NCBI GenBank assembly: GCA_020851235.1
Contig: JADZDD010000017.1
Coordinates: 124,001-188,000 of the forward strand
Length of the DNA: 64,000 bases
Direction: 5' to 3'
Source of the DNA: Burkholderiales bacterium
Lineage (GTDB): Bacteria; Pseudomonadota; Gammaproteobacteria; Burkholderiales; Casimicrobiaceae
A model generated the notes under the pieces. That model was not told where the DNA came from, did no database searches, and worked only from the letters and a program-made list of their open reading frames with translations. Numbering within the stretch: the stretch's first letter is position 1; each line of letters begins with the position of its first letter. Positions 12,511 to 33,149 of this stretch are shown in pieces. The position numbers were made by a program, and so were the translations under genes.

Positions 12511-12577
12511 GTAGGACAAGTCTTACGTCGATCCGGGCGCGCGGCGGCTCCATTCGGACGCGGGCTCACGCTACCAT
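12511..12577 (+). promoter_or_regulatory. RcsB-like operator plus -10 upstream of the otsA fusion
   Basis: GTAGGACAAGTCTTAC at 12511-12526 is an imperfect palindrome of the LuxR/FixJ-regulator type. Read on the other strand it matches 11 of 14 bases of the RcsB box TAAGAATATTCCTA. A -10-like TACCAT lies at 12572-12577, leaving 45 nt between motif and hexamer and putting the start near 12584, 37 bp before the ATG. The same motif with the same 45-nt spacing occurs before narX (33083-33149). Confidence 0.5.
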
Positions 12578-12620
12578 CGACGTTGCTCCTCGCCGCGCCG
12601 ACACCGGCGCCCTCGTCTGC

Positions 12621-14843
12621 ATGCGCCTCACGCTGCGCTTCCTCGTCCCGCTCGTCGTGGCACTCGGCCTGTTCGCCTACGCTGCGGTGCCGCTCGTCGA
12701 CGCGCTCACCACGCGCTGGTTCGTGCGTGACCTCGACATTCGCAGCAATCTCATCGCCAACACCGTCGAGGAGCCGCTCGAGGAGATGATCCGCACCGGG
12801 CAGCCGGCGCGCATCTCGGCGTTCTTCCAGCGGCTCACCACCGACGAGCGGCTGTACGCCGTGGGCCTTTGCCTGTCCGCCGACGGCATGCCGATTGCAA
12901 CCGGCGCGTACCCGAGCGAGCTGCGCTGCGGCGCGCTGCGCGCGTATTCGACCGCCGGCGATCACCTGCTGCGCACCCCCAAGGGCGTCGTCCACGTCGC
13001 GGTGCGCAAGATCGACGGCGTCGCACCCGACAGCGCGGAACTCGTGCTGGTGCACGACATGAGCTTCATCGAGCGGCGCAGCGAAGAGACCCGACGCTAC
13101 CTCTTCTACTTCTTCGCCGCGCTCACCTTGAGCGTGGCGCTCATCACGGTGGTGATCGCGCAACTGTCGTGGCGCGGCTGGGTCGCCGGACTGCGTGCGC
13201 TGCTGCGCGGCGAAGGCATCCTGCGCCCGTCGTCCAATACCGCGCCGGAACTCAAGCCGATCGCCCGCGACGTGCAGGCGCTCCTGCGCGAGTTGGAGCA
13301 CCAGTTCCGCCCCACCGACGAGACGCAGCAGCGGTGGACGCAGGACACGCTGCGCGCGGTCCTGCGCGGCGAGATGCGCGGCAACGACATCATCATCGTG
13401 AGCAACCGCGAGCCGTACATCCACGTCAAGACGGCCGACGGCATCAAGGTGCAGCATCCGGCGAGCGGCCTCGTCACCGCGCTCGAGCCCGTCATGCGCG
13501 CCTGCTCGGGCACCTGGATCGCGCACGGGAGCGGCAGCGCCGATCGCGAGACCGTCGACAAGGCTGATCGCGTGGCGGTGCCGCCGGATGCACCGGCGTA
13601 CCGCCTGCGTCGCCTGTGGCTGTCGGAGCGCGAGATCGCCGGCTACTACGAAGGCTTCGCCAACGAGGGATTGTGGCCGCTGTGCCACATCGCGCACGTG
13701 CGCCCGACGTTTCGTGCCGACGACTGGGAGCAGTACCAGGCCGTGAACCGGAAGTTCGCCGACGCCGTCGTGCAGGAGGCCACGAGCGACGATCCGGTGG
13801 TGCTCGTGCAGGACTATCACTTCGCGCTCCTGCCGCGCCTCATCCGCGAGCGCCTGCCGAAGGCGACGATCATCACCTTCTGGCACATCCCGTGGCCCAA
13901 CGCCGAGGCCTTCGCCATCTGTCCGTGGCGCGTGGAACTGCTCGACGGGCTCCTGGGCAGCGACATCATGGGCTTCCACACGCAGTTCCACGTCAACAAC
14001 TTCCTCGAGTGCGTCGATCGCTTCCTGGAAGCGCGCATCGATCGCGAGACGTTCACCGTCGTGGCGCAGGGCTTTCGCACCGCGGTGCACCGCTACCCGA
14101 TCTCGATCGAGTGGCCACCGGCGGCACTCGCGCACGTGCGGCCGATCGACGAGGCGCGCGAGAACGCGCGCGTTCGTCACGGCTTGCCGCGCGGCCATCG
14201 CCTCGGCATCGGGGTCGACCGCCTCGACTACACCAAGGGCATCATCGAGCGCTGCAATGCCGTGGCCCGGCTCATGGAGCGCGAGCCGCAATGGGTCGGG
14301 CGCTTCACGTTCATCCAGATCGCCGCGCCGTCACGCGGCACGATCGGTGACTACCGCAACTACGCCGATCGCGTCCACGAGCGCGTCGACGAGATCAATG
14401 CCCGCTTCCCGAACGCCGCGCACCCGCCGCTCATCCTCCTGCACGAGCATCACGAGCCGGATGCGGTGTACGAATACCTGCGCGCCGCGGACGTGTGCAT
14501 GGTGAGCAGCCTCCACGACGGCATGAACCTCGTCGCCAAGGAGTTCATCGCCGCGCACGACGACGACAGCGGTGTGCTCATCCTGTCGCAGTTCGCCGGC
14601 GCCTCGCGCGAGCTTCCCGAAGCGCTCATCGTCAATCCGTACGACGCCGAACAATGCGCGCAGGCATTGGCGCTGGCGCTCGCCATGCCGGCGGAGGAGA
14701 AGCGGGCGCGCATGCGACTCATGCGCAACATCATCCGCGAATTCAACGTCTACCGATGGGCAGGCCGCATGCTGCTCGACGCCGCCGCGATGCATCAGCG
14801 CAAGCGCTTCCGCGACCGCGTCGAGACGCAGCTGCCGGGCTGA
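12621..14843 (+). CDS. otsA: Membrane-anchored trehalose-6-phosphate synthase fusion
   Basis: 740-aa fusion. Residues ~5-27 form a membrane helix, ~28-159 a predicted periplasmic domain, and ~160-182 a second helix (YLFYFFAALTLSVALITVV). A HAMP-like linker follows to ~250. From NDIIIVSNREPYIH (~254) onward it is a GT20 trehalose-6-phosphate synthase, making trehalose-6-P from UDP-glucose and glucose-6-P. Visible active-site pieces are HIPWPNAEAF, LLGSDIMGFHTQFHVNNFLEC and GVDRLDYTKGIIERC (~530), then SSLHDGMNLVAKEF. Ordinary OtsA is about 470 aa and soluble. The otsB gene follows 26 bp later. The N-terminal part may sense an envelope signal such as osmolarity; that is inference. Confidence 0.9.
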   Translation: MRLTLRFLVPLVVALGLFAYAAVPLVDALTTRWFVRDLDIRSNLIANTVEEPLEEMIRTGQPARISAFFQRLTTDERLYAVGLCLSADGMPIATGAYPSELRCGALRAYSTAGDHLLRTPKGVVHVAVRKIDGVAPDSAELVLVHDMSFIERRSEETRRYLFYFFAALTLSVALITVVIAQLSWRGWVAGLRALLRGEGILRPSSNTAPELKPIARDVQALLRELEHQFRPTDETQQRWTQDTLRAVLRGEMRGNDIIIVSNREPYIHVKTADGIKVQHPASGLVTALEPVMRACSGTWIAHGSGSADRETVDKADRVAVPPDAPAYRLRRLWLSEREIAGYYEGFANEGLWPLCHIAHVRPTFRADDWEQYQAVNRKFADAVVQEATSDDPVVLVQDYHFALLPRLIRERLPKATIITFWHIPWPNAEAFAICPWRVELLDGLLGSDIMGFHTQFHVNNFLECVDRFLEARIDRETFTVVAQGFRTAVHRYPISIEWPPAALAHVRPIDEARENARVRHGLPRGHRLGIGVDRLDYTKGIIERCNAVARLMEREPQWVGRFTFIQIAAPSRGTIGDYRNYADRVHERVDEINARFPNAAHPPLILLHEHHEPDAVYEYLRAADVCMVSSLHDGMNLVAKEFIAAHDDDSGVLILSQFAGASRELPEALIVNPYDAEQCAQALALALAMPAEEKRARMRLMRNIIREFNVYRWAGRMLLDAAAMHQRKRFRDRVETQLPG

Positions 14844-14869
14844 CGTCGTTGTCGGCCGATCCGTCCGCC

Positions 14870-15694
14870 ATGAGCATCGCCCCCGCGCCCGAACACGCCG
14901 ACCAGCCGCGCTTCGTGCGGCCCCCACCCCCGGCGCTGCGCCACGATTGCGCGCTCTTCCTCGACATCGACGGCACGCTCGCCGAGCTTGCGAGCGTGCC
15001 GGAGGCGGTGCGCGTCGACCAGGAACTCGTGCGCAGCCTGCCGCGGATCATGCGCGATCTGGGAGGTGCGCTGGCGCTCGTCACCGGACGCGCGATCACG
15101 AGCGCGGACCGGCTCTTTCCCGGGCTCACGCTGCCGATGGCGGGACAGCACGGCTGCGAGCGGCGCGACGCCGCCGGGTCGATCCACCTGCACGCTCCGC
15201 ACCGGAAGACGCAGGCGCGCTTGCGCAAGCTCCTGCGCCGACTCGCACGACGCCATCCGCAGTTGCTGCTCGAGGACAAGGGCGCCGCGCTCGCGCTGCA
15301 CTATCGGGCGTTACCCGACCTCGCGCCACAGCTGTATCGCGCGGTGCGCCGGTCGCTGCGCGAGGACGACGGCTACAGCCTGCAGCCCGGCAAGCTCCTC
15401 ATCGAAGTCAAGCCGCACGAATTCGACAAGGGCACCGCCATCAATGACTTCATGGCCGAGACACCGTTCGCGGGCCGCCTCCCGGTGTTCGTCGGCGACG
15501 ATCTCACCGACGAGGACGGCTTTGCGAGCGTCGAGCGCCTCGGTGGCTGGACCGTCAAGGTCGGGGGCGGGCGCACGCGCGCGCAATACCGCTTGCCCGA
15601 CGTCGGCGCCGTCATCCGTTGGCTGCTCGCACCCATCCACGACGCCCCGGCGCGGGGTTCGGCAACCTCGGCGACGACGCTGCCGCGGAGCTGA
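14870..15694 (+). CDS. otsB: Trehalose-6-phosphate phosphatase
   Basis: HAD-superfamily phosphatase of 274 aa that removes phosphate from trehalose-6-phosphate. Motif I is ALFLDIDGTLAELAS with the nucleophilic DxD near residue 29. Motif II is ALVTGR. Motif III is the Lys-rich EVKPHEFDKGTAI, and motif IV is VFVGDDLTDEDGF. The length equals that of typical OtsB. It begins 26 bp after the otsA-fusion stop, so the two steps of the OtsAB pathway are co-expressed. The start at 14870 is chosen since upstream sequence in this frame is Arg-rich and non-homologous. Confidence 0.93.
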   Translation: MSIAPAPEHADQPRFVRPPPPALRHDCALFLDIDGTLAELASVPEAVRVDQELVRSLPRIMRDLGGALALVTGRAITSADRLFPGLTLPMAGQHGCERRDAAGSIHLHAPHRKTQARLRKLLRRLARRHPQLLLEDKGAALALHYRALPDLAPQLYRAVRRSLREDDGYSLQPGKLLIEVKPHEFDKGTAINDFMAETPFAGRLPVFVGDDLTDEDGFASVERLGGWTVKVGGGRTRAQYRLPDVGAVIRWLLAPIHDAPARGSATSATTLPRS

Positions 15695-15716
15695 CCCCGC
15701 AGGCGCCGATCGCCGC

Positions 15717-15733
15717 AGCGCCGCGAAGGCGCT
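15717..15733. terminator. Weak bidirectional hairpin between otsB and rraA-like gene
   Basis: AGCGCC / GGCGCT stem of 6 bp with a GCGAA loop, between convergent genes and overlapping the stop of the minus-strand gene. There is no T-tract, so its role as a terminator is uncertain. Confidence 0.3.
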
Positions 15734-17068: not shown

Positions 17069-17176
17069 GGCGACCCTCGTTGTAGCGACCGCGACCGGGT
17101 CGCGCCGCGCCTGCGATCGACCCCGGACACACGGACTTGCGATAATGCGACCCGACCGTCAAGGATGGGACGCCCG

Positions 17177-18325: not shown

Positions 18326-18326
18326 T
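18321..18326 (+). promoter_or_regulatory. Perfect -10 box for efp inside the earP stop
   Basis: TATAAT overlaps the TAA stop of earP, 112 bp before efp. The -35 region 17 bp upstream is poor. It suggests that efp, a high-abundance factor, has a promoter of its own with a leader of roughly 100 nt in addition to read-through from earP. Confidence 0.5.
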
Positions 18327-18437
18327 TCAGGGTTCCTTATTTGCCGCTGCCGCCGCACCTTGGCGCGGCACCGGCTGCCGCTGCGGCGGGCGCCCGGCAT
18401 CGCCCACCCCGCCCGGGCCCAACCTTCAGGACTCGTC

Positions 18438-18992: not shown

Positions 18993-19044
18993 GACCCGCG
19001 GCGACGCGACGCACGAGCCGGACCGCTGCGGCGCGCGTCGGGTG

Positions 19045-19064
19045 CGCTGCCGTGAACGGCAGCG
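19045..19064. terminator. Hairpin between convergent efp and tag
   Basis: Perfect 8-bp stem CGCTGCCG / CGGCAGCG with loop TGAA, between the 3' ends of efp and tag. There is no T-run on either side. It may terminate both genes or simply mark transcript ends. Confidence 0.45.
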
Positions 19065-19079
19065 TGCGTCCCACGAGCG

Positions 19080-19685: not shown

Positions 19686-19735
19686 CTGCCGATTGGAACA
19701 CGAATCGCGTGACGCCGCCGCGGCGACGCGCACGC

Positions 19736-20494: not shown

Positions 20495-20505
20495 GGCGGC
20501 GCGCC

Positions 20506-21240
20506 TCAATCGACCGCCGCGCTGCGCGGCGGCTCGTTTTGCCCCGGTGGCACGTTGAGACGGCGACTGCGCACGATCTGGTAGGGGCGGAAGAGATAGA
20601 AGATCGACGCGAACCCGCTCCAGACGTGGACGAGCCGGCTGAACGGCAGGAGGAGGAAGATCGTCATGCCGAGGACCAGGTGGAACCGGTACGGCCACGG
20701 CAGCCCCGCGAGCACCTCGACGTCGACGTGACGCAGCGTCAGGATCCGCTGCGCCCAGTCGGCGAGGATGATCATCGTGCTGCCGTCCGAGTGTGCCCAC
20801 GAGTACGGCAGCGTGACGAGCCCCACCACCAGCTGGACCCACAGGATCACGAGGATCGCGAGGTCGGTGCGGTGACTCGTGTAGCGGATGCGCGGATCGA
20901 AGGCGCGGCGGTAGATGAGCATGGTGAGGCCGATGAAGCACAGCACGCCCGCGATGCCGCCGGCGTAGATCGCGAGCTTCTGCTTCACCGACGCCTCCAT
21001 GAAGTGCGCGTAGAACGCGTGCGGCGTGAGCAGCCCCAGGAGGTGGCCGAAGAACAGGAAGATGATGCCGATGTGGAAGAGGTTGCTCCCCCAACGCATC
21101 CCCCGATGGCGCAGCAACTGCGACGAGTCGCTCTTCCACGTGTACTGGTCGCGATCGAAGCGCACGAGGCTTCCGAGCAGGAACACGGTGAGGCCGATGT
21201 ACGGATAGACGCCGAAGAGAAATCCATGCAGCGTGGTCAT
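20506..21240 (-). CDS. narI: Respiratory nitrate reductase gamma subunit
   Basis: Membrane cytochrome b (244 aa) that takes electrons from quinol and passes them to NarH. Five hydrophobic helices are visible. Haem-ligand histidines are in the expected places (SNLFHIGIIFLFFGHLLGL, and RFHLVLGMTIFLLLPFSRLVHVWS). The start codon overlaps the narJ stop by 4 bp. The sequence FLFGVYPYIGLTVFLLGSLVRFDRDQYTWKS, seen in pieces at the N-terminus, is diagnostic of NarI. Confidence 0.96.
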   Translation of the reverse strand: MTTLHGFLFGVYPYIGLTVFLLGSLVRFDRDQYTWKSDSSQLLRHRGMRWGSNLFHIGIIFLFFGHLLGLLTPHAFYAHFMEASVKQKLAIYAGGIAGVLCFIGLTMLIYRRAFDPRIRYTSHRTDLAILVILWVQLVVGLVTLPYSWAHSDGSTMIILADWAQRILTLRHVDVEVLAGLPWPYRFHLVLGMTIFLLLPFSRLVHVWSGFASIFYLFRPYQIVRSRRLNVPPGQNEPPRSAAVD

Positions 21241-22031
21241 GGCGCAGCCCTCCTCACGTCCTGTGCCTGGACCGGCGCGGGCGCCGATCGCGATGCCGCG
21301 TCGACGCGGCGGATGTTGCCGGAAGCAAGCGCACCGGGCGCGGTGTCGCTCGCGGCGCGCGCGCGGTCGCGGTGCACGTGGATGGGCTGAACCGTCGCAG
21401 GGCGCGCCTGGCCCGCGCTCGCACACCCGTCGAAGGCCGGCGGCTCTGCCCACGCCGCGTCCATCGGCTCGTCGTCGACGATGGCCACGGCCTGCGCCTT
21501 CTCGCCGGCCAGCTCGAGGAGCGCGCCGAGCACGCTGGCGTAGCGGCTCTCGCGCTTGACGAGCGCGGTGAAGATCGCCTGCAGGATGTGCGCGACCTCG
21601 CTCAGCAATGCTCGCGCCTCGCGCGGCGGCTGCGTCGACGCGAACTCGAGCAGCACCGGGAGGAAGTCCGGCAGCTCGCCTCCGACGAGCTCGAGGCCGG
21701 CCTGCGCATACGTCTGCGCAAGATCGATCATCGCCGGGCCGCGATCCCGTGAATCACCGTGGACGTGCTCGAAAAGATGCAGCGACGTGGCGCGGCCGCG
21801 GTCGAAGAGCTGCACGTAGTCGGCTTCGGCGTCGAGCGGATCGGCGCGCCCGATCGCATCGAGCAGCGCGGCGATCTCCGCGGTCCGCGTCCGGCTCACC
21901 GCGCCTTCGGCAACGATGGCGTCGTGCAACTCGGGGAGCGCGTCGCGCAGCCGCGCATCGGGATAGGTGAGCAGCGCGGCCAGGGCGCGCAGCGTCATCG
22001 GGGCCGGCCGTGGGCCGTCGAATGGGGACAT
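21237..22031 (-). CDS. narJ: Nitrate reductase assembly chaperone
   Basis: Cytosolic chaperone (264 aa) required to insert molybdenum cofactor into NarG and to time membrane docking. TorD-like helical core pieces are LRALAALLTYPDARLR, YVQLFDRGRATSLHLFEHVHGDSRDRG and LGGELPDFLPVLLEF-like sequence. The last ~60 residues are a Pro/Ala-rich tail without clear structure. The gene overlaps narI by 4 bp and follows narH by 2 bp. Confidence 0.94.
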   Translation of the reverse strand: MSPFDGPRPAPMTLRALAALLTYPDARLRDALPELHDAIVAEGAVSRTRTAEIAALLDAIGRADPLDAEADYVQLFDRGRATSLHLFEHVHGDSRDRGPAMIDLAQTYAQAGLELVGGELPDFLPVLLEFASTQPPREARALLSEVAHILQAIFTALVKRESRYASVLGALLELAGEKAQAVAIVDDEPMDAAWAEPPAFDGCASAGQARPATVQPIHVHRDRARAASDTAPGALASGNIRRVDAASRSAPAPVQAQDVRRAAP

Positions 22032-22033
22032 CG

Positions 22034-23557
22034 CTAGACCTCCGCCTTGATGGGAATCGTGCGGCGGCGACCGCCGCCGAAGATGCTCACGTCGGTGCTG
22101 CCCTCGGAGCAGCCATTGCCGAACGTGAAGCCGCAGCTGCCGCGCAGGTCGAAGGCGTTCTCCGCGTACTCGCGATGCGCGGTCGGAATGACGAAGCGGT
22201 CCTCGTAGTTGGCGATCGCCATCACCTGGTACATCGCGTCGGCCTGCGCCTCGGTGAGCCCGACCTGCGCGAGCGCGGCCGTATTGCTGCGCCCTTCCAC
22301 GTGCCGGCCACGCTGGTACGCGCGCATGCCGAGCATGCGTTCGAGGGCGCGCACGACGGGGGCCGTGTCGCCGGCGGTCAGAAGGTTGGCGAGGTAGCGC
22401 ACCGGGATGCGCAACTGGTTGACGTCGGGAATCTCGCCGTTGCTGCCGAGGTCGCCCGCGTTGGCAGCCGCGGAGATCGGCGACAGCGGCGGCACGTACC
22501 ACACCATCGGCAGCGTGCGGTACTCGGGGTGCAGCGGCAGCGCCACCTTCCAGTCCATTGCCATGCGATACACGGGGCTGCGCCGCGCGGCCTCGATCCA
22601 GGCATCGGGCACGCCGTCGGCGCGCGCCTGCGCGATGACCGCCGGGTCGTTGGGGTCGAGGAAGAGACCGAGCTGCGCCTCGTACAGGTCGCGATCGTGC
22701 GGCGTGCTCGCCGCCTCGGCGATGCGATCGGCGTCGTAGAGGAGCACGCCCAGGTAGCGGATGCGCCCGACGCAGGTCTCGCTGCACACGGTGGGCAGGC
22801 CCGCCTCGATGCGCGGGTAGCAGAACGTGCACTTCTCGGCCTTGCCGCTCTTCCAGTTGTAATAGATCTTCTTGTACGGACAGCCCGACACGCACATCCG
22901 CCAGCCGCGGCACTTGTCCTGGTCGACGAGCACCACGCCGTCCTCCTCGCGCTTGTAGATCGAGCCCGACGGGCAGCTCGCCACGCACGTGGGATTGAGG
23001 CAGTGCTCGCACAGCCGCGGCAGGTACATCATGAAGGTGTTCTCGAACTGCCCGTAGATGTCGCGCTCGACATCGTCGAAATTCCTGTCGCGGCTGCGCT
23101 TGGCGAATTCACCGCCCAGGATCTCCTCCCAGTTCGGGCCCCACTCGATCTTCTCCATGCGCAACCCCGTGACGAGGCTGCGCGGCCGCGCGGTCGGCGC
23201 CGCGTGCATCTCCGGCGCCGACTGCAGGTGGTCGTAGTCGAAGGTGAACGGCTCGTAGTAATCGTCGATCTGCGGCAGGTTGGGATTGGCGAAGATGCGC
23301 ATGAGGAGCTTCCAGCGCGCGCCCTGCCGCGGCTCGAGCGCGCCGTTCGCCTTGCGCACCCAGCCGCCGTTCCAGCGACCCTGGTTCTCCCATTCCTTGG
23401 GATAGCCGATGCCGGGCTTGGTCTCGACGTTGTTGAACCACGCGTACTCCATGCCCGGGCGGCTCGTCCACACGTTCTTGCAGGTGACCGAGCAGGTGTG
23501 GCAGCCGATGCACTTGTCGAGGTTGAGCACCATTCCGATCTGCGCGCGTACCTTCAT
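22034..23557 (-). CDS. narH: Respiratory nitrate reductase beta subunit
   Basis: Iron-sulfur subunit (507 aa) on the cytosolic side that wires NarI to NarG. Four Cys groups are visible: CIGCHTCSVTCKNVW near residue 16, CEHCLNPTCVASCPSG near 184, CRGWRMCVSGCPYKK near 215 and CTFCYPRIEAGLPTVCSETC near 240. The Trp in CRGWRMC replaces a Cys, the known signature of the [3Fe-4S] cluster in NarH. The gene overlaps narG by 4 bp. Confidence 0.97.
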   Translation of the reverse strand: MKVRAQIGMVLNLDKCIGCHTCSVTCKNVWTSRPGMEYAWFNNVETKPGIGYPKEWENQGRWNGGWVRKANGALEPRQGARWKLLMRIFANPNLPQIDDYYEPFTFDYDHLQSAPEMHAAPTARPRSLVTGLRMEKIEWGPNWEEILGGEFAKRSRDRNFDDVERDIYGQFENTFMMYLPRLCEHCLNPTCVASCPSGSIYKREEDGVVLVDQDKCRGWRMCVSGCPYKKIYYNWKSGKAEKCTFCYPRIEAGLPTVCSETCVGRIRYLGVLLYDADRIAEAASTPHDRDLYEAQLGLFLDPNDPAVIAQARADGVPDAWIEAARRSPVYRMAMDWKVALPLHPEYRTLPMVWYVPPLSPISAAANAGDLGSNGEIPDVNQLRIPVRYLANLLTAGDTAPVVRALERMLGMRAYQRGRHVEGRSNTAALAQVGLTEAQADAMYQVMAIANYEDRFVIPTAHREYAENAFDLRGSCGFTFGNGCSEGSTDVSIFGGGRRRTIPIKAEV

Positions 23558-26500
23558 GCTCCTTCTCCCAGCTTCTGCACGATCGGGGCGCGCTCGTCAC
23601 CGCGCGGCGTATCGAGCCAGTCGACCTTGGCCATCTTGCGCACGATGACGAACTCGTCGCGATTGGTGCCGACGGTCCCGTAGTAGTTGAAGCCGTACGA
23701 GAGCTGCGCGTAGCCGCCGATCATGTGCGTCGGCTTGAGCACCGTGCGCGTCACCGAGTTGTGGATGCCGCCGCGCGTGCCGGTGATCTCGGCTCCCGGC
23801 GTGTTCACCGTCTTCTCCTGCGCGTGGTACATCATCACCATGCCGCGCTGCACGCGCTGGCTCACCACCGCCCGCGCCGCGATCGCACCGTTCACGTTGA
23901 AGAGCTCGACCCAGTCGTTGTCGACGACGCCGGCACGCTGCGCGTCGTCCTCGGAGATCCAGATGACCGGACCGCCGCGATTGAGCGTCAGCATGATGAG
24001 GTTGTCGGTGTACGTGGAGTGGATCCCCCACTTCTGGTGCGGCGTGATGAAGTTGAGCACGATCTCGGGATTGCCGTTCGAGCGCACGTTGTGGATGCCG
24101 GCGGTGGCCTTGAGATCGACCGGCGGGCGATAACTGCCGAAGCCCTCGCCGAACGCGCGCATCCACGCGTGATCCTGGTAGAACTGCTGGCGCCCGGTGA
24201 GCGTGCGCCAGGGGATCAGCTCGTGCACGTTGGTGTAGCCGGCGTTGTAGCTCACCGTCTCGCTCTCCACGCCGCTCCACGTCGGCGAGGTGATGATCTT
24301 GCGCGGCTGCGCCTGGATGTCGCGGAAGCGGATCTTCTCGTCCTCGCGATGCAGCGCGAGATGCGCATGGTCGCGCCCGGTGATCTTCGACAGCGCATTC
24401 CAGGCCTTGACCGCGACCTGGCCGTTGGTCTCGGGGGCGAGCATGAGGATCACTTCGGCGGCATCGATGTCGGACTCGATGCGCGGCATCCCGCGCGTCG
24501 CGCCCTCGGCCGTGACCACGCCGTTGAGCTCGGCGACGTGACGCACCTCGTCCTGCGTGTTCCAGGCGATGCCCTTGCCGCCGTTGCCGATCTTGCCCAT
24601 GAGCGGTCCCAACGCCGTGAAGCGCCGGTAGACGTTGGGATAGTCGCGCTCGACCACCGTCATCTGCGGCGCCGTCCGGCCCGCGACGAGATCGACCTCG
24701 CCGCGCTTCCATTCGGCCACGCCCAGCGACTGGCCGAGCTCGCCCGGGGTGTCGTGCATGAGCGGCGTCAGCACGAGGTCGCGCTCGACCCCCAGATGCC
24801 CGGTGCAAAGCTGCGAGAGCTTCTTCGCGAACCCCTTGTAGATCTCCCAGTCGCTGCGCGCCTGCCACGCCGGATCGACCGCCGCCGACAGGGGATGGAT
24901 GAACGGGTGCATGTCGCTCGTGTTGAGGTCGTTCTTCTCGTACCACGTCGCGGTCGGCAGCACGATGTCCGAGTACATGCACGTCGTGCTCATGCGAAAG
25001 TCGAGCGTGACGAGAAGGTCGAGCTTGCCCTCGGGTGCGGCGGCGTGCCACTTCACCTCGGTGGGCTTCGCGTCGTCGCGTCCGAGGTCCTTGCCCTGCA
25101 CGCCGTTCGACGTCCCGAGGAGGTGCTTGAGGAAATACTCGTGGCCCTTGCCGCTCGACCCCAGGAGGTTCGAGCGCCACACGAAGAGGTTGCGCGGCCA
25201 GTTCGCCGGATCGTCCGGGTCCTCGCAGCTCATGGCAAGCCGCCCGTCCCGGAGTGCGGCGACGGCGTACTCCCTGGGATCGATGCCCGCGGCCTGCGCG
25301 TCGCGCACGACCTGCAGCGGATTGGTCTTCAGCTGCGGCGCCGACGGCAGCCACCCCATGCGCTCGGCGCGCACGTTGTAGTCGATCATGCTCCCGCCGT
25401 AGAGCGTCCGGTCGGCGAGCGGCGAGAGGATCTCGTCGACCGTGAGCTTCTCGTAGCGCCACTGATCGGTATGCGCGTAGAAGAACGACGTCGCGTTCTG
25501 CTGCCGCGGCGGGCGGACCCAGTCGAGCGCGAAGGCGAGCGCGGTCCAACCCGTCTGCGGCCGCAGCTTCTCCTGGCCCACGTAGTGCGCCCAGCCACCG
25601 CCGCTTTGGCCCACGCAACCGCACAGCATCAGCATGTTGATGATGCCGCGATAGTTCATGTCGCAGTGATACCAGTGGTTCATGCCGGCGCCGATGATCA
25701 CCATCGACTTGCCGCGGGTCTTGTCGGCGTTGTCGGCGAACTGGCGCGCGACGGTGATCACCTGCGCGCGCGGCACGCCGGTGATGCGCTCCTGCCAGGC
25801 CGGCGTATACGGCACGTCGTCGTCGTACCTCGCGGCGGCGTTCTCGCCGGCAAGACCGCGCGCCACCCCGTAGTGCGCGGCGACGAGGTCGAAGACGGTG
25901 GCCACGCACGCCTGCGCGTCGCCCGCGAGCGCGATGCGCCGCACCGGCACGGTACGCACGAGCACGGCGTCGCCGGGATTGCTCGCGAAGTGTTCGCGCG
26001 CAATGCCGCCGAAGTACGGAAACGCAACACTCGCGGTCTCGACCTGGCTGCCGGCGGCCTCGAGCGCGGACAGGCGAAGCTTCACTTCCGCCCCGCGCTG
26101 CGCCTCCTTCGCTTCGAGGTTCCAGCGCCCGCCGTCGCTGCGCCCCTCGGCACCCCAGCGAAAGCCGATCGCCCCGTGCGGCAGGACGACGCCGCCGTCC
26201 TGGTCGCAGGCGACGGTCTTCCACTCGGGATGGTTGTCCTGCCCGAGTGCCCCTTCGAAGTCGCTTGCGCGCACGTAGCGACCCGGCACGCGCACGACCT
26301 TGCCGTCGGGCAGCGTCTTCTCCTCGAGCAGCACGAGCAGCGGCAGGTCCGTGTAGCGACGCGCGTAGTCGTCGAAGTACGCGCTGCGCCGATCGAAATA
26401 GAACTCCTTCAGGATGACGTGACCGAGCGCCATCGCGAGCGCGGCGTCGGTGCCCTGCTTCGGATGCAGCCACAGGTCTGCGAGCTTGGAGACCTCGGCG

Positions 26501-27351
26501 TAGTCGGGCGTGACCGCGACCGTCTTCGCCCCCTTGTAGCGGACCTCGGTGAAGAAGTGCGCGTCGGGCGTGCGCGTCTGCGGCACGTTGCTGCCCCAGG
26601 CGATGAGGTACGTGCTGTTGTACCAGTCGGCCGACTCGGGTACGTCGGTCTGCTCGCCCCAGGTCTGCGGCGACGACGGCGGCAGGTCACAGTACCAGTC
26701 GTAGAAGCTCAACGACACCCCGCCGATGAGGCTCAAGTAGCGGCTGCCCGCGGCGTAGCTCACCATCGACATCGCCGGGATCGGCGAGAAGCCCGCCACC
26801 CGATCGGGCCCGTATTTCTTGATCGTGTAGACGTTGGCCGCGGCGACGATCTCGTTGACCTCGTCCCAGCTCGACCGCACGAAACCACCCATCCCGCGCA
26901 GGCGCTGGTAGTCGCGTCGCGTCTCCTCCGACTCGACGATCGTCGCCCACGCGGCGACGGGATCGTGCGCGAGCCGTGCCCGGCGCCAATGGCGCAGCAG
27001 ACGACCGCGCACGAGCGGATACTTGAGCCGATTCGCGCTGTACAGGTACCAGCTGTACGAGGCACCGCGCGCGCAGCCGCGCGGCTCGTGGTTGGGCATG
27101 TCGAAGCGCGTGCGCGGGTAGTCGGTCTGCTGCGTCTCCCAGGTGACGATGCCGCCCTTGACGTAGATCTTCCACGAGCAACTGCCGGTGCAGTTGGTGC
27201 CGTGCGTCGAGCGCACGATCTTGTCGTGCCCCCACCGGCCGCGGTACGCGTCCTCCCACGTGCGATCCTCGCCCGTGACCATCCCGTGGCCGCCGGCGAA
27301 GGCCTCGCGCGGCTGTGAGAAATACGTGAGGCGATCCAGGAAATGGCTCAT
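23554..27351 (-). CDS. narG: Respiratory nitrate reductase alpha subunit
   Basis: Catalytic molybdenum subunit (1265 aa) that reduces nitrate to nitrite on the cytosolic face of the membrane. The N-terminal [4Fe-4S] site uses His and three Cys in STHGTNCTGSCSWKIYVKGG and EPRGCARGASYSW. The Mo-bis-MGD fold contains SYAAGSRYLSLIGG and YNSTYLIAWGSNVPQTRTPD, which holds the region of the Asp ligand. The C-terminus ends GTVGTNRDEFVIVRKM-like, as in other NarG proteins. The start at 27351 (MSHFLDRL) is the standard NarG start. The gene follows narK2 by 22 bp. Confidence 0.97.
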   Translation of the reverse strand: MSHFLDRLTYFSQPREAFAGGHGMVTGEDRTWEDAYRGRWGHDKIVRSTHGTNCTGSCSWKIYVKGGIVTWETQQTDYPRTRFDMPNHEPRGCARGASYSWYLYSANRLKYPLVRGRLLRHWRRARLAHDPVAAWATIVESEETRRDYQRLRGMGGFVRSSWDEVNEIVAAANVYTIKKYGPDRVAGFSPIPAMSMVSYAAGSRYLSLIGGVSLSFYDWYCDLPPSSPQTWGEQTDVPESADWYNSTYLIAWGSNVPQTRTPDAHFFTEVRYKGAKTVAVTPDYAEVSKLADLWLHPKQGTDAALAMALGHVILKEFYFDRRSAYFDDYARRYTDLPLLVLLEEKTLPDGKVVRVPGRYVRASDFEGALGQDNHPEWKTVACDQDGGVVLPHGAIGFRWGAEGRSDGGRWNLEAKEAQRGAEVKLRLSALEAAGSQVETASVAFPYFGGIAREHFASNPGDAVLVRTVPVRRIALAGDAQACVATVFDLVAAHYGVARGLAGENAAARYDDDVPYTPAWQERITGVPRAQVITVARQFADNADKTRGKSMVIIGAGMNHWYHCDMNYRGIINMLMLCGCVGQSGGGWAHYVGQEKLRPQTGWTALAFALDWVRPPRQQNATSFFYAHTDQWRYEKLTVDEILSPLADRTLYGGSMIDYNVRAERMGWLPSAPQLKTNPLQVVRDAQAAGIDPREYAVAALRDGRLAMSCEDPDDPANWPRNLFVWRSNLLGSSGKGHEYFLKHLLGTSNGVQGKDLGRDDAKPTEVKWHAAAPEGKLDLLVTLDFRMSTTCMYSDIVLPTATWYEKNDLNTSDMHPFIHPLSAAVDPAWQARSDWEIYKGFAKKLSQLCTGHLGVERDLVLTPLMHDTPGELGQSLGVAEWKRGEVDLVAGRTAPQMTVVERDYPNVYRRFTALGPLMGKIGNGGKGIAWNTQDEVRHVAELNGVVTAEGATRGMPRIESDIDAAEVILMLAPETNGQVAVKAWNALSKITGRDHAHLALHREDEKIRFRDIQAQPRKIITSPTWSGVESETVSYNAGYTNVHELIPWRTLTGRQQFYQDHAWMRAFGEGFGSYRPPVDLKATAGIHNVRSNGNPEIVLNFITPHQKWGIHSTYTDNLIMLTLNRGGPVIWISEDDAQRAGVVDNDWVELFNVNGAIAARAVVSQRVQRGMVMMYHAQEKTVNTPGAEITGTRGGIHNSVTRTVLKPTHMIGGYAQLSYGFNYYGTVGTNRDEFVIVRKMAKVDWLDTPRGDERAPIVQKLGEGA

Positions 27352-27373
27352 CGTGATCTTCCCGTCGATTCGA

Positions 27374-29029
27374 TCATGGATTCTTGATGTAGGCGTTGCG
27401 CCGGAGGTAGAACCACCAGTTGATGACGAGGCACAGCGCGTAGAACGCGGCAAAGCCGTACATCGCATACTGCGGCGTCCCCGCCTTGATCTGGTTGCCG
27501 ATCACGATCGGCGCGACGAAGGCGCCGTACGCGGCGACCGCCGAGGTCCAGCCCAGCACGGGACCCGCCTGCGTGCGATCGAAGATGACGCCGATGGTGC
27601 GAAACGTCGAGCCGTTGCCGATCCCGCTCGCCGCGAAGAGGACGATGAAAAGCCCCAGGAACGCGGGGAAGTACACCTCGGGCGTGGCCGAGTGGTACGC
27701 CATCATCATCACGTAGCCGACGGCGATCGACGCCACGACCATCACCGCCGAGATGACCTGCGTGACGATCGAGCCGCCGACCTTGTCGGAGATCCAGCCG
27801 CCGATCGGCCGCACCGCGGCGCCGACGAAGGGCCCGATCCAGGCGTAGGCCAATACCGGCAGCGCATTCGGATTGGGCTTCGTGTGCTGCATCACGCCGT
27901 TGGCATCGGGAACGTGGATCACGTCGAAGATCACCTTCATGGCGAGCGGCAACGCCATGGAGAAACCGATGAACGAGCCGAAGGTCACGATGTACAGCGC
28001 CGTGAGGCTCCAGGTGTGCTTGTCCTTGAAGATCGCGTACTGCTTGGTGACGGCCTCCTTCATCGGCCCGAAGGCGGCGAGCTTCATGATGGTGAGCGCG
28101 AGGACGATGTCGAGCGGAATCGACACCCACATGCTGATGAGGCCGACCCCCGTGGGCGGCGGCAGGTACAGCCACAGCCCGAGGATCGCCGGGATGAAGG
28201 CGAGCGTGTAGAGCCACGTCACCTTGGCGAACGCGGCGATCGGATTCCCCGTGGCAGGTGACACGGACTTCAGGTTGTTCATCCCGAACCAGCACAGCGC
28301 GGCGAGCGGCACCAGCGAGAACACCCAGGCGAAGCCGGCGTTCTGGATCCAGGTCGGCGTCCCGGCGGGGATCTTGCCGAAGATCCAGCCGCTCTCCTTG
28401 ACGAGCGTTTCGGAGGCGCCGCCGAGGGCGCCCAGGAGCGGCACCGTCATCACGAGCGGCACCACGATCTGCATCGTCGTCACGCCGAAGTTGCCGAGGC
28501 CGGCATTGAGGCCGAGCGCCGTGCCTTGCAGCCGCTTCGGGAAGAAGGTGCTGATGTTCGACATCGACGAGGCAAAGTTGCCGCCGCCCACGCCGCACCA
28601 CAGCGCCATCAGCTGGAAGCTCCACAGCGGCCATTCCGGGTGCTGCAGCACGATGCCGGTGCCGATTGCCGGCGCGAGCAGCATCGCGGTGGTGAGAAAG
28701 ATCGTGTTGCGCCCGCCGGCCAAACGGATGAAGAACGACGACGGGATGCGCATCGTCGCGCCGGCGATCCCGGCGATCGCCGTCAGCGTGAACAGTTGCT
28801 CCTGGGTGAAGGGAAAGCCCAGGTTCAACATCTGCACCGTGATGATCCCCCACATGCCCCAGACCGCGAAGCCGCACAGCAGCGCCGGCACCGAGATCCA
28901 CAGGTTGCGGTAGGCGACGCGTTTGCCGGTCGCCTCCCAGAACGCGGGGTCCTCCGGATGCCAGTCGGTGAGGGTTGCCCCGGTGCGCGCGGGTTTCCCT
29001 GGGAGCGGTGCTTCGAGCGTGGTCGTCAT
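27374..29029 (-). CDS. narK2: Nitrate/nitrite transporter, NarK2 type
   Basis: Major facilitator (551 aa) with twelve predicted helices and an extra ~40-residue cytosolic N-terminus (DWHPEDPAFWEATGKRVAYRNL). Nitrate signature regions are visible: GGNFASSMSNISTFFPKRLQGTALGLNAGLGNFG and, near the C-terminus, GIGNGSTFRTIGVIF. The length and N-terminal tail are those of the NarK2 nitrate/nitrite antiporter class. It sits between narK1 and narG with gaps of 10 and 22 bp. Confidence 0.93.
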   Translation of the reverse strand: MTTTLEAPLPGKPARTGATLTDWHPEDPAFWEATGKRVAYRNLWISVPALLCGFAVWGMWGIITVQMLNLGFPFTQEQLFTLTAIAGIAGATMRIPSSFFIRLAGGRNTIFLTTAMLLAPAIGTGIVLQHPEWPLWSFQLMALWCGVGGGNFASSMSNISTFFPKRLQGTALGLNAGLGNFGVTTMQIVVPLVMTVPLLGALGGASETLVKESGWIFGKIPAGTPTWIQNAGFAWVFSLVPLAALCWFGMNNLKSVSPATGNPIAAFAKVTWLYTLAFIPAILGLWLYLPPPTGVGLISMWVSIPLDIVLALTIMKLAAFGPMKEAVTKQYAIFKDKHTWSLTALYIVTFGSFIGFSMALPLAMKVIFDVIHVPDANGVMQHTKPNPNALPVLAYAWIGPFVGAAVRPIGGWISDKVGGSIVTQVISAVMVVASIAVGYVMMMAYHSATPEVYFPAFLGLFIVLFAASGIGNGSTFRTIGVIFDRTQAGPVLGWTSAVAAYGAFVAPIVIGNQIKAGTPQYAMYGFAAFYALCLVINWWFYLRRNAYIKNP

Positions 29030-29039
29030 CGCGAATCCA

Positions 29040-30344
29040 TCAGCCGCGCGTGGAGGGCGCGGACGTCGCCGTCACGGGCGCGTGCGCGCCGGCGTGCAGC
29101 GGTGAGGCCGGCGCATGCGGCCCGATCACCTCGGTGCGGCGCACCTCGGTCCAGTACATCCAGATGAGCGAGACCCAGACGACGCCGTACATGAGCATGA
29201 ATGCGGACGAGCGCACGCCGGTCAGATCCATGAGCGCGCCGAACATGATCGGGAGGATGAAGCCACCCAGGCCGCCGGCAAGACCCACCACACCGGAGAC
29301 GACGCCGATGTTTCCCGGATAGTCGTCCGAGATGTACTTGAACACCGACGCCTTGCCGAAGGCCCAGGCGATGCCGAGCACGAAGAGCAGGAACGTGAAC
29401 GCCCACACGTTGAGTCCGATGTGGAAGCTGCGCGGGCCGTTCAGCGTGTTGATCGTCAGTTCGGTCTGCGGATACGACAGGAGGAAGAGGCAGATCCAGC
29501 TCACCCACATCACCCACCAGGTGAGCGCATGCGCGCCGATCCGGTCGGAGAGCCAGCCGCCGACGGCGCGCAACACCCCGCCGGGCAGGGAGAAGCACGC
29601 GGCGAGGAGCGCCGCGGCGCGGATGTCGAGGCCGTACTCGCCGACGTAGTACTGCACCATCCACAGCGACAGCGCGACGTAGCCGCCGAACACGATCGAG
29701 TAGTACTGGCAGTACTTCCAGACCTTGGGATCCTTGAGCGCCGCGAGCTGCTCGCGCCAGGTCACCGAGGCATCGACGCGGTGTGCGGGATCGGAATGGC
29801 TGAACATCCAGAAGAGGAGCGCCGTGCCCAGCATGATCGCGGCGTAGACCTCGGGCACCATCGTCCAGCCGAAGGCGATGATGAGCGCCGGGGCGATGAA
29901 CTTGTTGACCGCCGCGCCCGAGTTGCCGGCGCCGTACACCCCCATCGCGAAGCCCTGCTGATCGCGCGGAAACCAGCGCGCGACATACGGCGTGCCGACG
30001 GAGAACGAGCCGCCGGCAAGGCCGACGAAGAGCCCGAGCACGAGGAACTGCCAGAACTGCGTCGCGTAGGCGATGAGCCAGATCGGCACCACGCAGACGA
30101 GCATCAGGACGAACATGACGATCCGCCCGCCGTACTTGTCGGTCCACATGCCGAGCGGGACACGGATGAGCGAGCCCGTCAGGACCGGGGTCGCGGTAAG
30201 GAGACCAAACTCGGTGGCGTTGAGATCGAGCGCCTTGCGGATGGGGATGCCGATGACGCCAAACATCATCCACACCATGAAGCACACGGTGAAGGCGAGC
30301 GTGCTCGCGACCAACACCGACAATGCCTTCGCCTTCTTGTCCAC
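29040..30344 (-). CDS. narK1: Nitrate transporter, NarK1 type
   Basis: Major facilitator of about 434 aa with twelve helices. NarK1-type signature regions are GLAGGSFSVGTPYVARWFPRDQQGFAMGVYGAGNSGAAV and YPGNIGVVSGVVGLAGGLGGF, seen in order. This class is usually a nitrate/H+ symporter that starts uptake before NarK2 exchange begins. The frame is open to 30455, but the GTG at 30344 with GGGGAG eight bases upstream gives MDKKAKALSVLVAS, the usual N-terminus, so that start is preferred. It is the first gene of the structural operon. Confidence 0.9.
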   Translation of the reverse strand: MDKKAKALSVLVASTLAFTVCFMVWMMFGVIGIPIRKALDLNATEFGLLTATPVLTGSLIRVPLGMWTDKYGGRIVMFVLMLVCVVPIWLIAYATQFWQFLVLGLFVGLAGGSFSVGTPYVARWFPRDQQGFAMGVYGAGNSGAAVNKFIAPALIIAFGWTMVPEVYAAIMLGTALLFWMFSHSDPAHRVDASVTWREQLAALKDPKVWKYCQYYSIVFGGYVALSLWMVQYYVGEYGLDIRAAALLAACFSLPGGVLRAVGGWLSDRIGAHALTWWVMWVSWICLFLLSYPQTELTINTLNGPRSFHIGLNVWAFTFLLFVLGIAWAFGKASVFKYISDDYPGNIGVVSGVVGLAGGLGGFILPIMFGALMDLTGVRSSAFMLMYGVVWVSLIWMYWTEVRRTEVIGPHAPASPLHAGAHAPVTATSAPSTRG

Positions 30345-30489
30345 CGCGCCGATCTCCCCTGTCGTTACGTCCAACACGAAGGATAGGAAGCGCGAGCGGG
30401 CGCGCCCATCCCCCGCTGGGGGAGTTGCCAGCCCTCCGGAAGGAGGACCCCGCACGCGGCGACCTCCTCCGAAAGAACGATGCGGGGAA
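30345..30489 (-). promoter_or_regulatory. narL-narK1 intergenic region with two inverted repeats
   Basis: 145 bp between narL and narK1. It holds two short hairpins: CCCCC / GGGGG with loop GCT (30410-30422) and CCTCC / GGAGG with loop GGAA (30433-30446). Neither has a T-run. I could not find a clear FNR box or a NarL 7-2-7 heptamer pair. The region is expected to carry the nitrate-operon promoter, as in P. aeruginosa, but the sequence does not prove it. Confidence 0.4.
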
Positions 30490-31161
<672 letters not shown>

Positions 31162-31162
31162 C

Positions 31163-33076
31163 TCAGCGACCCGCGCCAGCGCTCGCCGCGAGGCGCGCCT
31201 CGCTCACGGGGACGGTCTCGCGCGGCAGTGTCAGCACGATCGCCGTACCGCGCCCGGGCGCGGAATCGATCTCGAGCGTGGCGCCGATCTTCTCCGCACG
31301 CTCGTGCATGATGCGCAGCCCCACGTGATCTTCGCCCGCCTGCGCGGCGACGGCAAAGCCCACTCCGTCGTCGCGGACCTCGAAGCGCCAGGCGGGCGTG
31401 CGCTCGACGATGAGGCGCACGCTCTCGGCGTGCGCGTGCTTGCGCACGTTCGACAGCGCCTCCTGCACGATGTGCAGCACCTGGATCTGCACGTCGGGAG
31501 CGAGCGGCAAGCCGTGTCCGTTGAGCGCGAGGTGCGCCGCCAGACCGGACTGGTGCTCGAACTTGCGCAGCGTCGTGCGCAGCGCCGGCTCGATGTCGGC
31601 CCCCTGCGGCCGGGTGCGGAAGTGCACGAGGAGCTCGCGCACGTCGCCGTAGCACTCGCGCACGCCGGTGTCGATCTCGTGCAGAACCTTGCGCGCCTGC
31701 GGCAGGTCACCGGCAGCGACCGCGTCGCGCATGAGGCCCACCTGCAGCTTGATGAAGGCGAGCACCTGGGCGATCGAGTCGTGCAGCTCGCGGGCGATGA
31801 ACGCGCGCTCCTGCGTGACCGCCGCCTCGCGCTCGAGGCCCGCAAGGCGCAGGTTCTCCATCGCGGCAGCGAGATGCGCGGTGAGCGCTTCGAGCAGCGA
31901 GCGCTCGGCCGGGGTGGGCGTGACGTGGGCGTGATAGAAGAGATCGACCTCGCCCAGCCGCCGCTCGTGCAGCCGGATGGGCAGCGACACGATGCTCGCG
32001 TAGCCCGCGACGGCGCAGTGCTTGGTCCCCGGCGGCTCGACGTCGCGCACCGCGATCACGCGCACCGCCGGCGTGGGTGCGTGCGTGCCGCAGAAGCAGC
32101 GACCGGCGTGGACGCACTGCTCGCGCTGCGCCATCGTTTGCGGCAGCCCTTCGGTGGCGAGCAGCACGTACTCATCGCTGTCCTCGTCGACCCAACGCAC
32201 CGCCACGCCGTCGGCACGGGCCACGCGCGCCACGCGCTGCGCGAAGCCATGCGCGAGTTCGGTGAGCGTCGTCGCATCGCTTGCCAGTGCCGTCACCGCG
32301 TAGAGCGCCTCGAGTCGCTCGTGCTTCTCCTCGAGCTGCGAGGTCTTGTCGGCCACCCGCGCCTCGAGATCGCGATACAGCGATTGCAGGTGCGCGGCCA
32401 TGCCATTGAAGCATTCGGCGAGCGAGCCCAGCTCGTCGGTGGTGACACCGTGGACGCGCGCGCCGAAGTCGCCCGCGGCGATGCGCGTGGTCGCCTGCTT
32501 GAACCGCCCGACCGGATCGAGGATGAAGAGGTAGCCCGTGACGAGCAGCACCGCGCCGCCGATGACGGCGAGCGCCATCATCGTGATCTGCAACAAGTGC
32601 AGCAGCGCGGTCCAGCGTGCGACGTGGCGCTCGATCGCATCCACCAGCGCGTCGATCTCGGCAGTGAAGGCGACCGACTGCGCAAGCAGGCCGTCGGTGT
32701 CGCTGCCGTGCAGCGCGCCCCACCGTTCGCGAAACGCGCGCGCGCCCGCGGCGACCGCCGCGACATGCGCGGCGATCGTGGCATCGGCGGGCAGCGCGAG
32801 CGGCCGCTCGGGGTCGCCGGTGCGCAGCACGTCGAGGCCGCGCTCGAAGTCGGCGACGACGGTCGCGAGCTCGGCCTCGTCGCGCAGTGCCACGGCGAGC
32901 GCCCAGTGCTTGACCTGCATGCGCATGCGTCCGGCCTCGTTGACCGCGGCCGCGCCGCCGTCGAGCTGCCAGGAGATCCACAGCGTCGCGGCAAACGACG
33001 CGATGCCGAGCACGACGAATGGCGCCGCGACGAGGCTCAAGGTCGAGGCGAGCGTCCAATGGGTCCGGCCGATCAT
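31163..33076 (-). CDS. narX: Nitrate/nitrite sensor histidine kinase
   Basis: 637-aa inner-membrane kinase. A first helix (~12-35) is followed by a periplasmic domain whose start AAAVNEAGRMRMQVKHWALA is a P-box-like nitrate site. A second helix (~190-212), a HAMP segment and a GAF-like domain follow. The GAF region holds several Cys residues (CVHAGRCFCGTHAPTP and KHCAVAGYAS). The HisKA_3 dimer helix is RAFIARELHDSIAQVLAFIKL with the phosphorylated His. The ATPase domain has ALSNVRKHAHAESVRL and DDGVGF. The order fits NarX. A motif shared with the otsA promoter lies just upstream. Confidence 0.92.
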   Translation of the reverse strand: MIGRTHWTLASTLSLVAAPFVVLGIASFAATLWISWQLDGGAAAVNEAGRMRMQVKHWALAVALRDEAELATVVADFERGLDVLRTGDPERPLALPADATIAAHVAAVAAGARAFRERWGALHGSDTDGLLAQSVAFTAEIDALVDAIERHVARWTALLHLLQITMMALAVIGGAVLLVTGYLFILDPVGRFKQATTRIAAGDFGARVHGVTTDELGSLAECFNGMAAHLQSLYRDLEARVADKTSQLEEKHERLEALYAVTALASDATTLTELAHGFAQRVARVARADGVAVRWVDEDSDEYVLLATEGLPQTMAQREQCVHAGRCFCGTHAPTPAVRVIAVRDVEPPGTKHCAVAGYASIVSLPIRLHERRLGEVDLFYHAHVTPTPAERSLLEALTAHLAAAMENLRLAGLEREAAVTQERAFIARELHDSIAQVLAFIKLQVGLMRDAVAAGDLPQARKVLHEIDTGVRECYGDVRELLVHFRTRPQGADIEPALRTTLRKFEHQSGLAAHLALNGHGLPLAPDVQIQVLHIVQEALSNVRKHAHAESVRLIVERTPAWRFEVRDDGVGFAVAAQAGEDHVGLRIMHERAEKIGATLEIDSAPGRGTAIVLTLPRETVPVSEARLAASAGAGR

Positions 33077-33082
33077 CGCGCC

Positions 33083-33149
33083 ATCTTACAAAGATGCCGC
33101 GGCGCCGTGTTGCGCGACCGCAAAGCGCGAGGCGTAAGACTCGTCCGAC
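33083..33149 (-). promoter_or_regulatory. RcsB-like operator plus -10 upstream of narX
   Basis: On the minus strand GTCGGACGAGTCTTAC (33149 to 33134) matches the motif at 12511-12526 in 14 of 16 bases. A -10-like TAAGAT lies at 33088-33083, again 45 nt after the motif. The predicted start would fall at about 33076, the A of the narX ATG, implying a leaderless or nearly leaderless mRNA if the hexamer is right. Confidence 0.45.

What the first reader, a model, noticed from the sequence alone, without database searches (positions are those of the whole stretch)
12511..33149. Same RcsB-like motif with identical 45-nt spacing before the otsA fusion and narX
GTAGGACAAGTCTTAC (12511-12526, plus) and GTCGGACGAGTCTTAC (33149-33134, minus) agree at 14 of 16 positions. 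Each is followed by a -10-like hexamer (TACCAT; TAAGAT) after exactly 45 nt. On the opposite strand the first is TAAGACTTGTCCTA, 11/14 to the E. coli RcsB box. The polarity is opposite to NarL heptamers, so this is probably another LuxR/FixJ-type regulator. It may tie osmoprotection and nitrate sensing to one signal. The narX start would then be leaderless, which weakens that one -10 assignment.
Basis: partly seen in the sequence, partly recalled or inferred. Interest (0 to 1): 0.72.

Follow-up and report, generated by a model that had tools for sequence, protein, structure and literature searches.

The report
Stress regulator's box, otsA and narX
A short DNA palindrome lies exactly 45 bases before the promoter core of a trehalose gene and of a nitrate-sensing operon in an uncultured betaproteobacterium; the same box at the same spacing precedes a response-regulator gene in this genome and its relatives, so that regulator probably controls itself and both gene sets.

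Summary
Both boxes are at the stated places, agree at 14 of 16, and each has a TANNAT hexamer after exactly 45 nt. In this genome the bare motif is not more frequent than its reversed control. Its location is telling: four strict sites, none inside a called gene, and three of them (otsA, narX and a LuxR-type response regulator on another contig) carry the 45-nt hexamer.

The regulator promoter settles it: 15 of 16 testable same-genus loci have the box (at most one mismatch) exactly 45 nt before TANNAT; shuffles 2 of 400. otsA promoters carry it in 8 of 12 same-genus genomes, at 45/46 or 22/23 nt; shuffles 15 of 2400. A second half-site about 22 bp downstream is enriched.

Best reading: operator of an autoregulated UvrY/GacA-like response regulator (best such match in this genome, below the family cut-off), working as BvgA does with phased dimers. 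RcsB itself is unlikely. narX is a narrow target (3 of 24 upstream regions, own included). Binding, signal and transcription starts are untested.

The parts
12511..12526 (+). Box A of the otsA promoter, GTAGGACAAGTCTTAC (imperfect inverted repeat GTMGG-N6-CYKAC)
   Evidence: box at 45/46 or 22/23 nt before TANNNT in 8 of 12 same-genus otsA promoters
12476..12482 (+). Possible weak upstream half-site GTAGTCC, 35 nt before box A (tentative)
   Evidence: a GTAGGA half-site lies 35 nt upstream of the box in 4 of 15 regulator promoters (G000, G003, G008, G009)
12572..12577 (+). -10-like hexamer TACCAT, 45 nt after the box
12621..14843 (+). otsA fusion: N-terminal extension plus glycosyltransferase family 20
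   Evidence: Pfam PF00982
14870..15694 (+). otsB, trehalose-phosphatase, directly downstream
   Evidence: Pfam PF02358
33134..33149 (-). Box A of the narX promoter, GTCGGACGAGTCTTAC
   Evidence: kept in G003 and, without a hexamer at 45, in G009
33083..33088 (-). -10-like hexamer TAAGAT, 45 nt after the box; narX ATG 6 nt further
   Evidence: identical in G003
31163..33076 (-). narX/narQ-type nitrate sensor kinase
   Evidence: below the NCBIfam cut-offs
30490..31161 (-). NarL-type response regulator
   Evidence: below the NCBIfam cut-off
20506..30344 (-). Two MFS transporters (narK-type by position) and narG, narH, narJ, narI: nitrate respiration genes downstream of narXL
   Evidence: Pfam

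Best explanation
The motif is the upstream operator ('box A', GTMGGA-N4/5-TCYKAC) of an autoregulated LuxR-type response regulator of the UvrY/GacA/BvgA kind, encoded in this genome at G000:C35:337999-338628. Shown by sequence: box A ends 45 nt before a TANNNT hexamer at otsA, narX and the regulator's own promoter, and the regulator promoter keeps this through the genus. Inferred: the phosphorylated regulator binds box A as a head-to-head dimer centred near -65, a second dimer two helical turns downstream reaches the poor -35 region, and together they recruit sigma-70 RNA polymerase. In some relatives the strong otsA site is moved to about that second position (22/23 nt before -10). Inferred: its signal, possibly redox, oxygen or desiccation stress (behind the regulator lie a receiver-only gene and a hemerythrin gene, with a convergent CHASE3 histidine kinase), raises trehalose synthesis (otsAB) and nitrate respiration (narXL and the genes behind it) together.
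For: Spacing: TANNNT at offset 45 after 12 of 65 intergenic sites from the window's genus and genera g3-g5, 0.52 expected; 7 downstream-gene groups at 45 against a mean of 0.34 at other offsets. Regulator promoter: 15 of 16 testable same-genus loci, each at exactly 45; shuffles 2 of 400. otsA: 8 of 12 same-genus promoters with at most 1 mismatch, shuffles 15 of 2400; G034 of genus g3 also has it at 45 nt. Location: 25 of 29 and 40 of 44 sites intergenic, reversed control 9 of 24. In genera g3-g5 a number of sites lie beside related kinase-regulator operons. Second half-site CYKAY: offset 18 in 10 of 50 site-orientations (0.44 expected) in the genus; offsets 16-18 in 20 of 80 (2.4 expected) in g3-g5. 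The regulator is the best UvrY/SirA/GacA match of the genome, 175 bits; the UvrY palindrome TGTAAGNNNNNNCTTACA (PMC4682653, passages) has the same 5-6-5 geometry, matched at 10, 9 and 9 of 12. BvgA dimers sit 22 bp apart, the last abutting the -35 region, and poor -35 elements are typical (PMC7250471, passages).
Against: No binding or transcription data. The box-regulator link is by position and family resemblance; a paralogue (C4:38711, 45% identical) or another LuxR-type protein could bind. Own otsA and narX lack a recognisable second half-site (shuffle fractions 0.069 and 0.58). At the regulator copy tested in G007 (C90) no box with hexamer was found; its second copy (C193, 76% identical) was not tested. 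otsA of G009 and G017 lacks the box although the regulator is present. In g3-g5 alone the hexamer peak is small and split: 3 sites at 45 and 3 at 43 of 40. The 22/23-nt register, the K in CYKAC and the second half-site were defined after looking at these promoters, which the shuffles do not correct for. Matches to the UvrY palindrome are common: 12 oriented matches of 9 or more of 12 in the window, boxes included. Orthologous promoters are not independent, so the Poisson probabilities overstate certainty. Some box hits probably belong to other systems, for example beside a ParD antitoxin gene.
Confidence: 0.72

Rival explanations
1. The box is the operator of another LuxR-type regulator, such as the paralogue at C4:38711 or a protein outside this subfamily, and only sits at the C35 regulator's promoter as one more target.
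For: The paralogue scores almost as high against UvrY/SirA/GacA (171 against 175 bits). In genera g3-g5 several boxes lie just downstream of the kinase-regulator paralogue operon, before a receiver-only or an FNR/CRP-type gene (one of each confirmed by Pfam).
Against: No perfect site in the 10 kb fetched round the C4 paralogue in this genome, while the C35-type regulator promoter keeps the box in 15 of 16 testable same-genus loci. G002 and G015, which have no close C35-type regulator, have no otsA box with at most one mismatch; G002 has a two-mismatch candidate, as 109 of 2400 shuffles do.
Confidence: 0.17
2. NarL, encoded directly behind narX, uses the site (autoregulation plus otsA).
For: narL is adjacent and the site is an inverted repeat.
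Against: Half-sites point the opposite way to NarL heptamers (TACYYMT, recalled). G001, G007, G008, G012, G014 and G019 have an otsA box but no close narX (best E no better than about 1e-38).
Confidence: 0.04
3. Chance: two similar 16-mers and two AT-rich hexamers in a GC-rich window.
For: No excess of the bare motif over reversed controls in this genome.
Against: Exact 45-nt spacing at a third, unlinked promoter and in 15 of 16 testable same-genus loci, 2 of 400 shuffles; intergenic bias.
Confidence: 0.02
4. The box at otsA and at the regulator is real, but the narX box is a near-chance or recently gained copy without regulatory weight.
For: Only 3 of 24 narX-like upstream regions, own included, have a box, two of them with 45-nt spacing; no second half-site.
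Against: G003 keeps box, 45 nt and TAAGAT with a diverged spacer.
Confidence: 0.15

Closest known systems
BarA-UvrY / GacS-GacA and the UvrY/GacA box (TGTAAG-N6-CTTACA)
   Same: Inverted repeat with the same 5-6-5 geometry; regulator's best NCBIfam match is UvrY/SirA/GacA; a TGTAGGAGA half-site also occurs next to the E. coli csrB palindrome (PMC4682653, passages).
   Different: Score 174-175 bits, below the 280-bit cut-off; box near -65 instead of about -183; targets are protein genes and the regulator itself; neighbouring kinase is CHASE3-HisKA_3, not a BarA-like hybrid.
BvgA of Bordetella and its tandem operators
   Same: Inverted half-sites and a second half-site about 22 bp downstream reaching a poor -35 element (PMC7250471, passages).
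   Different: For BvgA the dimers are shown by experiment; here they are inferred, and own otsA and narX lack a clear second site.
RcsB / RcsAB box
   Same: Half-site type: 11 of 14 to TAAGAATATTCCTA (recalled) on one strand.
   Different: The RcsB model gives the regulator 72 bits, cut-off 235.
NarL/NarP heptamers
   Same: Inverted repeats bound by LuxR-type regulators; narL lies next door.
   Different: Opposite half-site polarity (consensus recalled).

Membership tests
UvrY/SirA/GacA response regulators (NF007018) | Receiver plus GerE/LuxR helix-turn-helix | tested here: met
   PF00072 and PF00196
UvrY/SirA/GacA response regulators (NF007018) | Score over the equivalog cut-off of 280 bits | tested here: not met
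   174.2 and 175.3 bits
UvrY/SirA/GacA response regulators (NF007018) | BarA/GacS-type hybrid kinase partner (recalled) | tested here: inconclusive
   The convergent neighbour is CHASE3-HisKA_3-HATPase; whether it is the true partner is unknown
UvrY/SirA/GacA response regulators (NF007018) | Palindrome TGTAAG-N6-CTTACA at targets | tested here: inconclusive
   10, 9 and 9 of 12 at otsA, narX and own promoter; such matches also occur by chance in the window
UvrY/SirA/GacA response regulators (NF007018) | Activates csrB/rsm-type small RNAs | not tested
   No search for them was made
BvgA-type tandem operator | Dimer sites spaced about 22 bp, last one abutting -35 | tested here: inconclusive
   Second half-site seen by sequence at the regulator promoters and at g3-g5 sites, not at own otsA and narX
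BvgA-type tandem operator | Cooperative binding of phosphorylated dimers | not testable with these tools
   Needs footprinting
RcsB regulon | Regulator is RcsB | tested here: not met
   NF008098 72 bits, cut-off 235, for the C35 regulator

The most novel reading that the evidence does not exclude
A lineage-wide stress regulon in uncultured Betaproteobacteria, run by an autoregulated UvrY/BvgA-like regulator. It acts directly at protein-coding promoters through an operator fixed to the base pair (45 nt from -10, or two helical turns closer), and couples trehalose synthesis, nitrate respiration and, in relatives, oxidative repair (superoxide dismutase, methionine sulfoxide reductase) and an FNR/CRP-type gene.
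Probability: 0.45. Interest if true: 0.6.

Novelty: new variant of a known kind. Interest (0 to 1): 0.5.

Why it matters
It names a concrete regulator, operator and targets in an uncultured group, and would link compatible-solute synthesis with nitrate respiration. The rigid 45-nt spacing, and the alternative 22/23-nt register at the same gene in relatives, make activator position relative to the -10 directly testable with natural variants.

Tried and rejected
Bare-motif enrichment: none over reversed controls in this genome or summed over its genus (33 against 32); present in genus g3 (46 against 19). With the looser GTMGGAN{4,5}TCYKAC the genus gives 83 against 51 strand-counted hits. otsA orthologues from the 80 named loci kept: 9 with a weak match against 18 in the reversed control, so no conservation at that distance. 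RcsB and NarL as regulators were rejected as above. A third half-site at offsets 39-41 in genera g3-g5 is not claimed, because there it may overlap the -10 region. The fourth strict site of this genome (C13:161329) has no 45-nt hexamer on either side, and the two nearest called genes scanned gave no Pfam match. Palindromes beside ParD-like genes (L276, L278; only the first was scanned) probably belong to another system. In one search locus L018 was read at the wrong place and L091-L094 were not scored; one search repeats these five, none has a hexamer at 45. Seven of the 36 hits came without a locus and were not scored. Literature: the listings showed no description of this box or regulon (one search matched 6,534 papers, 25 listed); only passages of PMC7250471 and PMC4682653 were seen.

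Full report
1. Observation. Both motif copies, the 14-of-16 agreement, the 45-nt distances, the 11-of-14 RcsAB match and the near-leaderless narX start are correct. The strict word GTNGGACNNGTCTTAC occurs twice in the 3.93-Mb genome, both in this window. As a bare word there is no excess in this genome: 36 hits against 49 reversed, 10 against 11, 4 against 5; nor in the genus (33 against 32), but there is in genus g3 of the same family (46 against 19; row sums, strand-counted).

2. From motif to box. Upstream regions of relatives showed variants with 4 or 5 central bases: narX of G003 and G009, otsA of G008. The generalised box GTMGGAN{4,5}TCYTAC was then sought in 149 related genomes. All 29 distinct sites of the window's genus and all 44 listed for genera g3, g4 and g5 were fetched or already held; sites of other genera were not followed. 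With a home-made gene caller trained on five window genes, 25 of 29 and 40 of 44 lie mostly outside called genes; of 24 reversed-control sites from g3-g5 (the listing was cut short), 9 do (Fisher p about 6e-6 for 40 of 44 against 9 of 24). The caller covers 0.89 of the window but only 0.61-0.65 of the fetched g3-g5 DNA, so the control is the fairer yardstick. Of the four strict sites of this genome none lies inside a called gene; the one at the regulator overlaps the end of a neighbouring gene by 4 nt.

3. Spacing. TANNNT begins exactly 45 nt after the box, in one orientation or the other, at 9 of the 25 intergenic same-genus sites (0.25 expected per offset) and at 12 of 65 in all (0.52 expected); in g3-g5 alone 3 of 40 at 45 and 3 of 40 at 43. 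Grouped by downstream gene, 7 groups have it at 45 against a mean of 0.34 at other offsets; two of the seven belong to the same regulator operon in different species, and two contain the discovery pair, so three are fully new (G007 sodB, G045 C20, G034 C338) besides the operon. Among 24 control sites one had TANNNT at 45. In the window's own genome, of the relaxed sites for which loci were held only otsA, narX and the C35 regulator show it.

4. The regulator. A number of boxes lie beside LuxR-type response regulators. In this genome the box GTAGGATCCGTCCGAC ends 228 bp before the regulator gene C35:337999-338628. There the order is box, regulator, receiver-only gene, hemerythrin gene, with a convergent CHASE3-HisKA_3 histidine kinase. 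Of 18 same-genus regulator loci, two were cut short; 15 of the other 16 have a box (7 without, 8 with one mismatch) exactly 45 nt before TANNAT, the exception being copy C90 of G007. Block-shuffled upstream regions of the 16 loci give 2 of 400 at 45 and 17 of 400 at any tested offset. In 9 of the 15 the box begins 1.15-1.22 kb upstream of the regulator; in G009 a sigma-54 activator gene fills that gap (Pfam), in the others this was judged by distance and by eye only. In G014 and G001 it is 433-447 bp (a 104-aa Fis-type gene between in G014), and in G000, G003, G008 and G019 140-244 bp. The spacing is thus kept while the gene behind the promoter changes. By NCBIfam the regulator is nearest to UvrY/SirA/GacA (174 bits, cut-off 280), then MctR (155) and NarL (137); EvgA 101, RcsB 72. 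It is the best such match in the genome; the C4 paralogue follows with 171 bits, the next has 117.

5. otsA. Of the 12 same-genus otsA promoters with a full-length match (G013, G020, G021 and a second copy in G017, partial or distant, were left out) 8 have the box with at most one mismatch: G000 and G008 at 45/46 nt, and G001, G006, G007, G012, G014 and G019 at 22/23 nt; G007 also has a two-mismatch box at 45, 23 bp from the other. Shuffled promoters gave 15 of 2400. The 22/23-nt register was noticed in these same sequences before the test. Of 11 otsA promoters from other genera G034 has a perfect box at 45 nt, the rest none with at most one mismatch. Missing in the genus: G009 and G017, which have the regulator, and G002 and G015, which have no close one. 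otsB follows otsA.

6. Second element. In the 15 regulator promoters ATC-G and CCGAT are conserved 7-23 nt after the box. Over all sites the half-site CYKAY is enriched at offset 18 in the genus (10 of 50 site-orientations, 0.44 expected) and at 16-18 in g3-g5 (20 of 80, 2.4 expected). This is two helical turns from box A, as for BvgA dimers (PMC7250471, passages). Scored against the regulator promoters, the shuffle fractions are 0 for G034 otsA and G045 C20, 0.001 for G034 C338, 0.051 for G007 sodB, 0.069 for own otsA, 0.32 for G003 narX, 0.58 for own narX and 0.63 for G008 otsA: the element is present in the first three, doubtful or absent in the rest.

7. narX. Box in 3 of 24 narX-like upstream regions, own included; 45 nt in G000 and G003; G009 has a TANNNT at 60 nt and none at 45. 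Behind narXL lie two MFS genes and narGHJI on the same strand, so the promoter could serve nitrate respiration as a whole; this is inference.

8. Other genes with an intergenic box nearby. Ten of the genes listed or seen were scanned: superoxide dismutase (G007, hexamer at 45), methionine sulfoxide reductase (G017, no hexamer at 45), a PP2C phosphatase (G010), a BON-domain gene (G038, hexamer at 43), a CBS-domain gene (G034), a phosphatidylethanolamine-binding-type gene (G047), an FNR/CRP-type gene (G030), a receiver-only gene (G047), a ParD-like antitoxin (G039) and one without a match (G034 C338, hexamer at 45). These are leads, not established targets.

9. Mechanism and rank. The best reading is an autoregulated UvrY/GacA-like regulator acting directly at sigma-70 promoters in BvgA style. 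Regulator identity, phosphorylation, direction of control and signal are inferred. It works like these systems; it is not filed as a UvrY/GacA member because the cut-off was not met.

Noticed in passing
L378 6046-6957; L379 7250-7564; L374 7997-8873: Between box and regulator lies a sigma-54 activator gene in G009, a 104-aa Fis-type gene in G014 and none in G000, while the box-45-(-10) promoter stays intact: apparently gene loss behind a kept promoter.
   Followed up: partly
window 33076-33088: narX appears leaderless or nearly so, with TAAGAT 6 nt before ATG, and the same arrangement in G003.
   Followed up: partly
L276 1458-1474; L278 1486-1502: GTAGGA palindromes 19-21 bp from ParD-like genes (only the first scanned); probably operators of those operons, so not every box hit is this regulon.
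   Followed up: no
window 12621-13388: The otsA fusion has an N-terminal extension of about 256 aa without a Pfam match; relatives at 53-69% identity occur in named records labelled Betaproteobacteria, Gemmatimonadetes, Acidobacteria, Nitrospira and Deltaproteobacteria, among others.
   Followed up: no
window 33430-33447: A relaxed palindrome, GTAGGCATCCGCCGACA on one strand, in the lon-narX intergenic region, about 280 bp upstream of the narX box.
   Followed up: no
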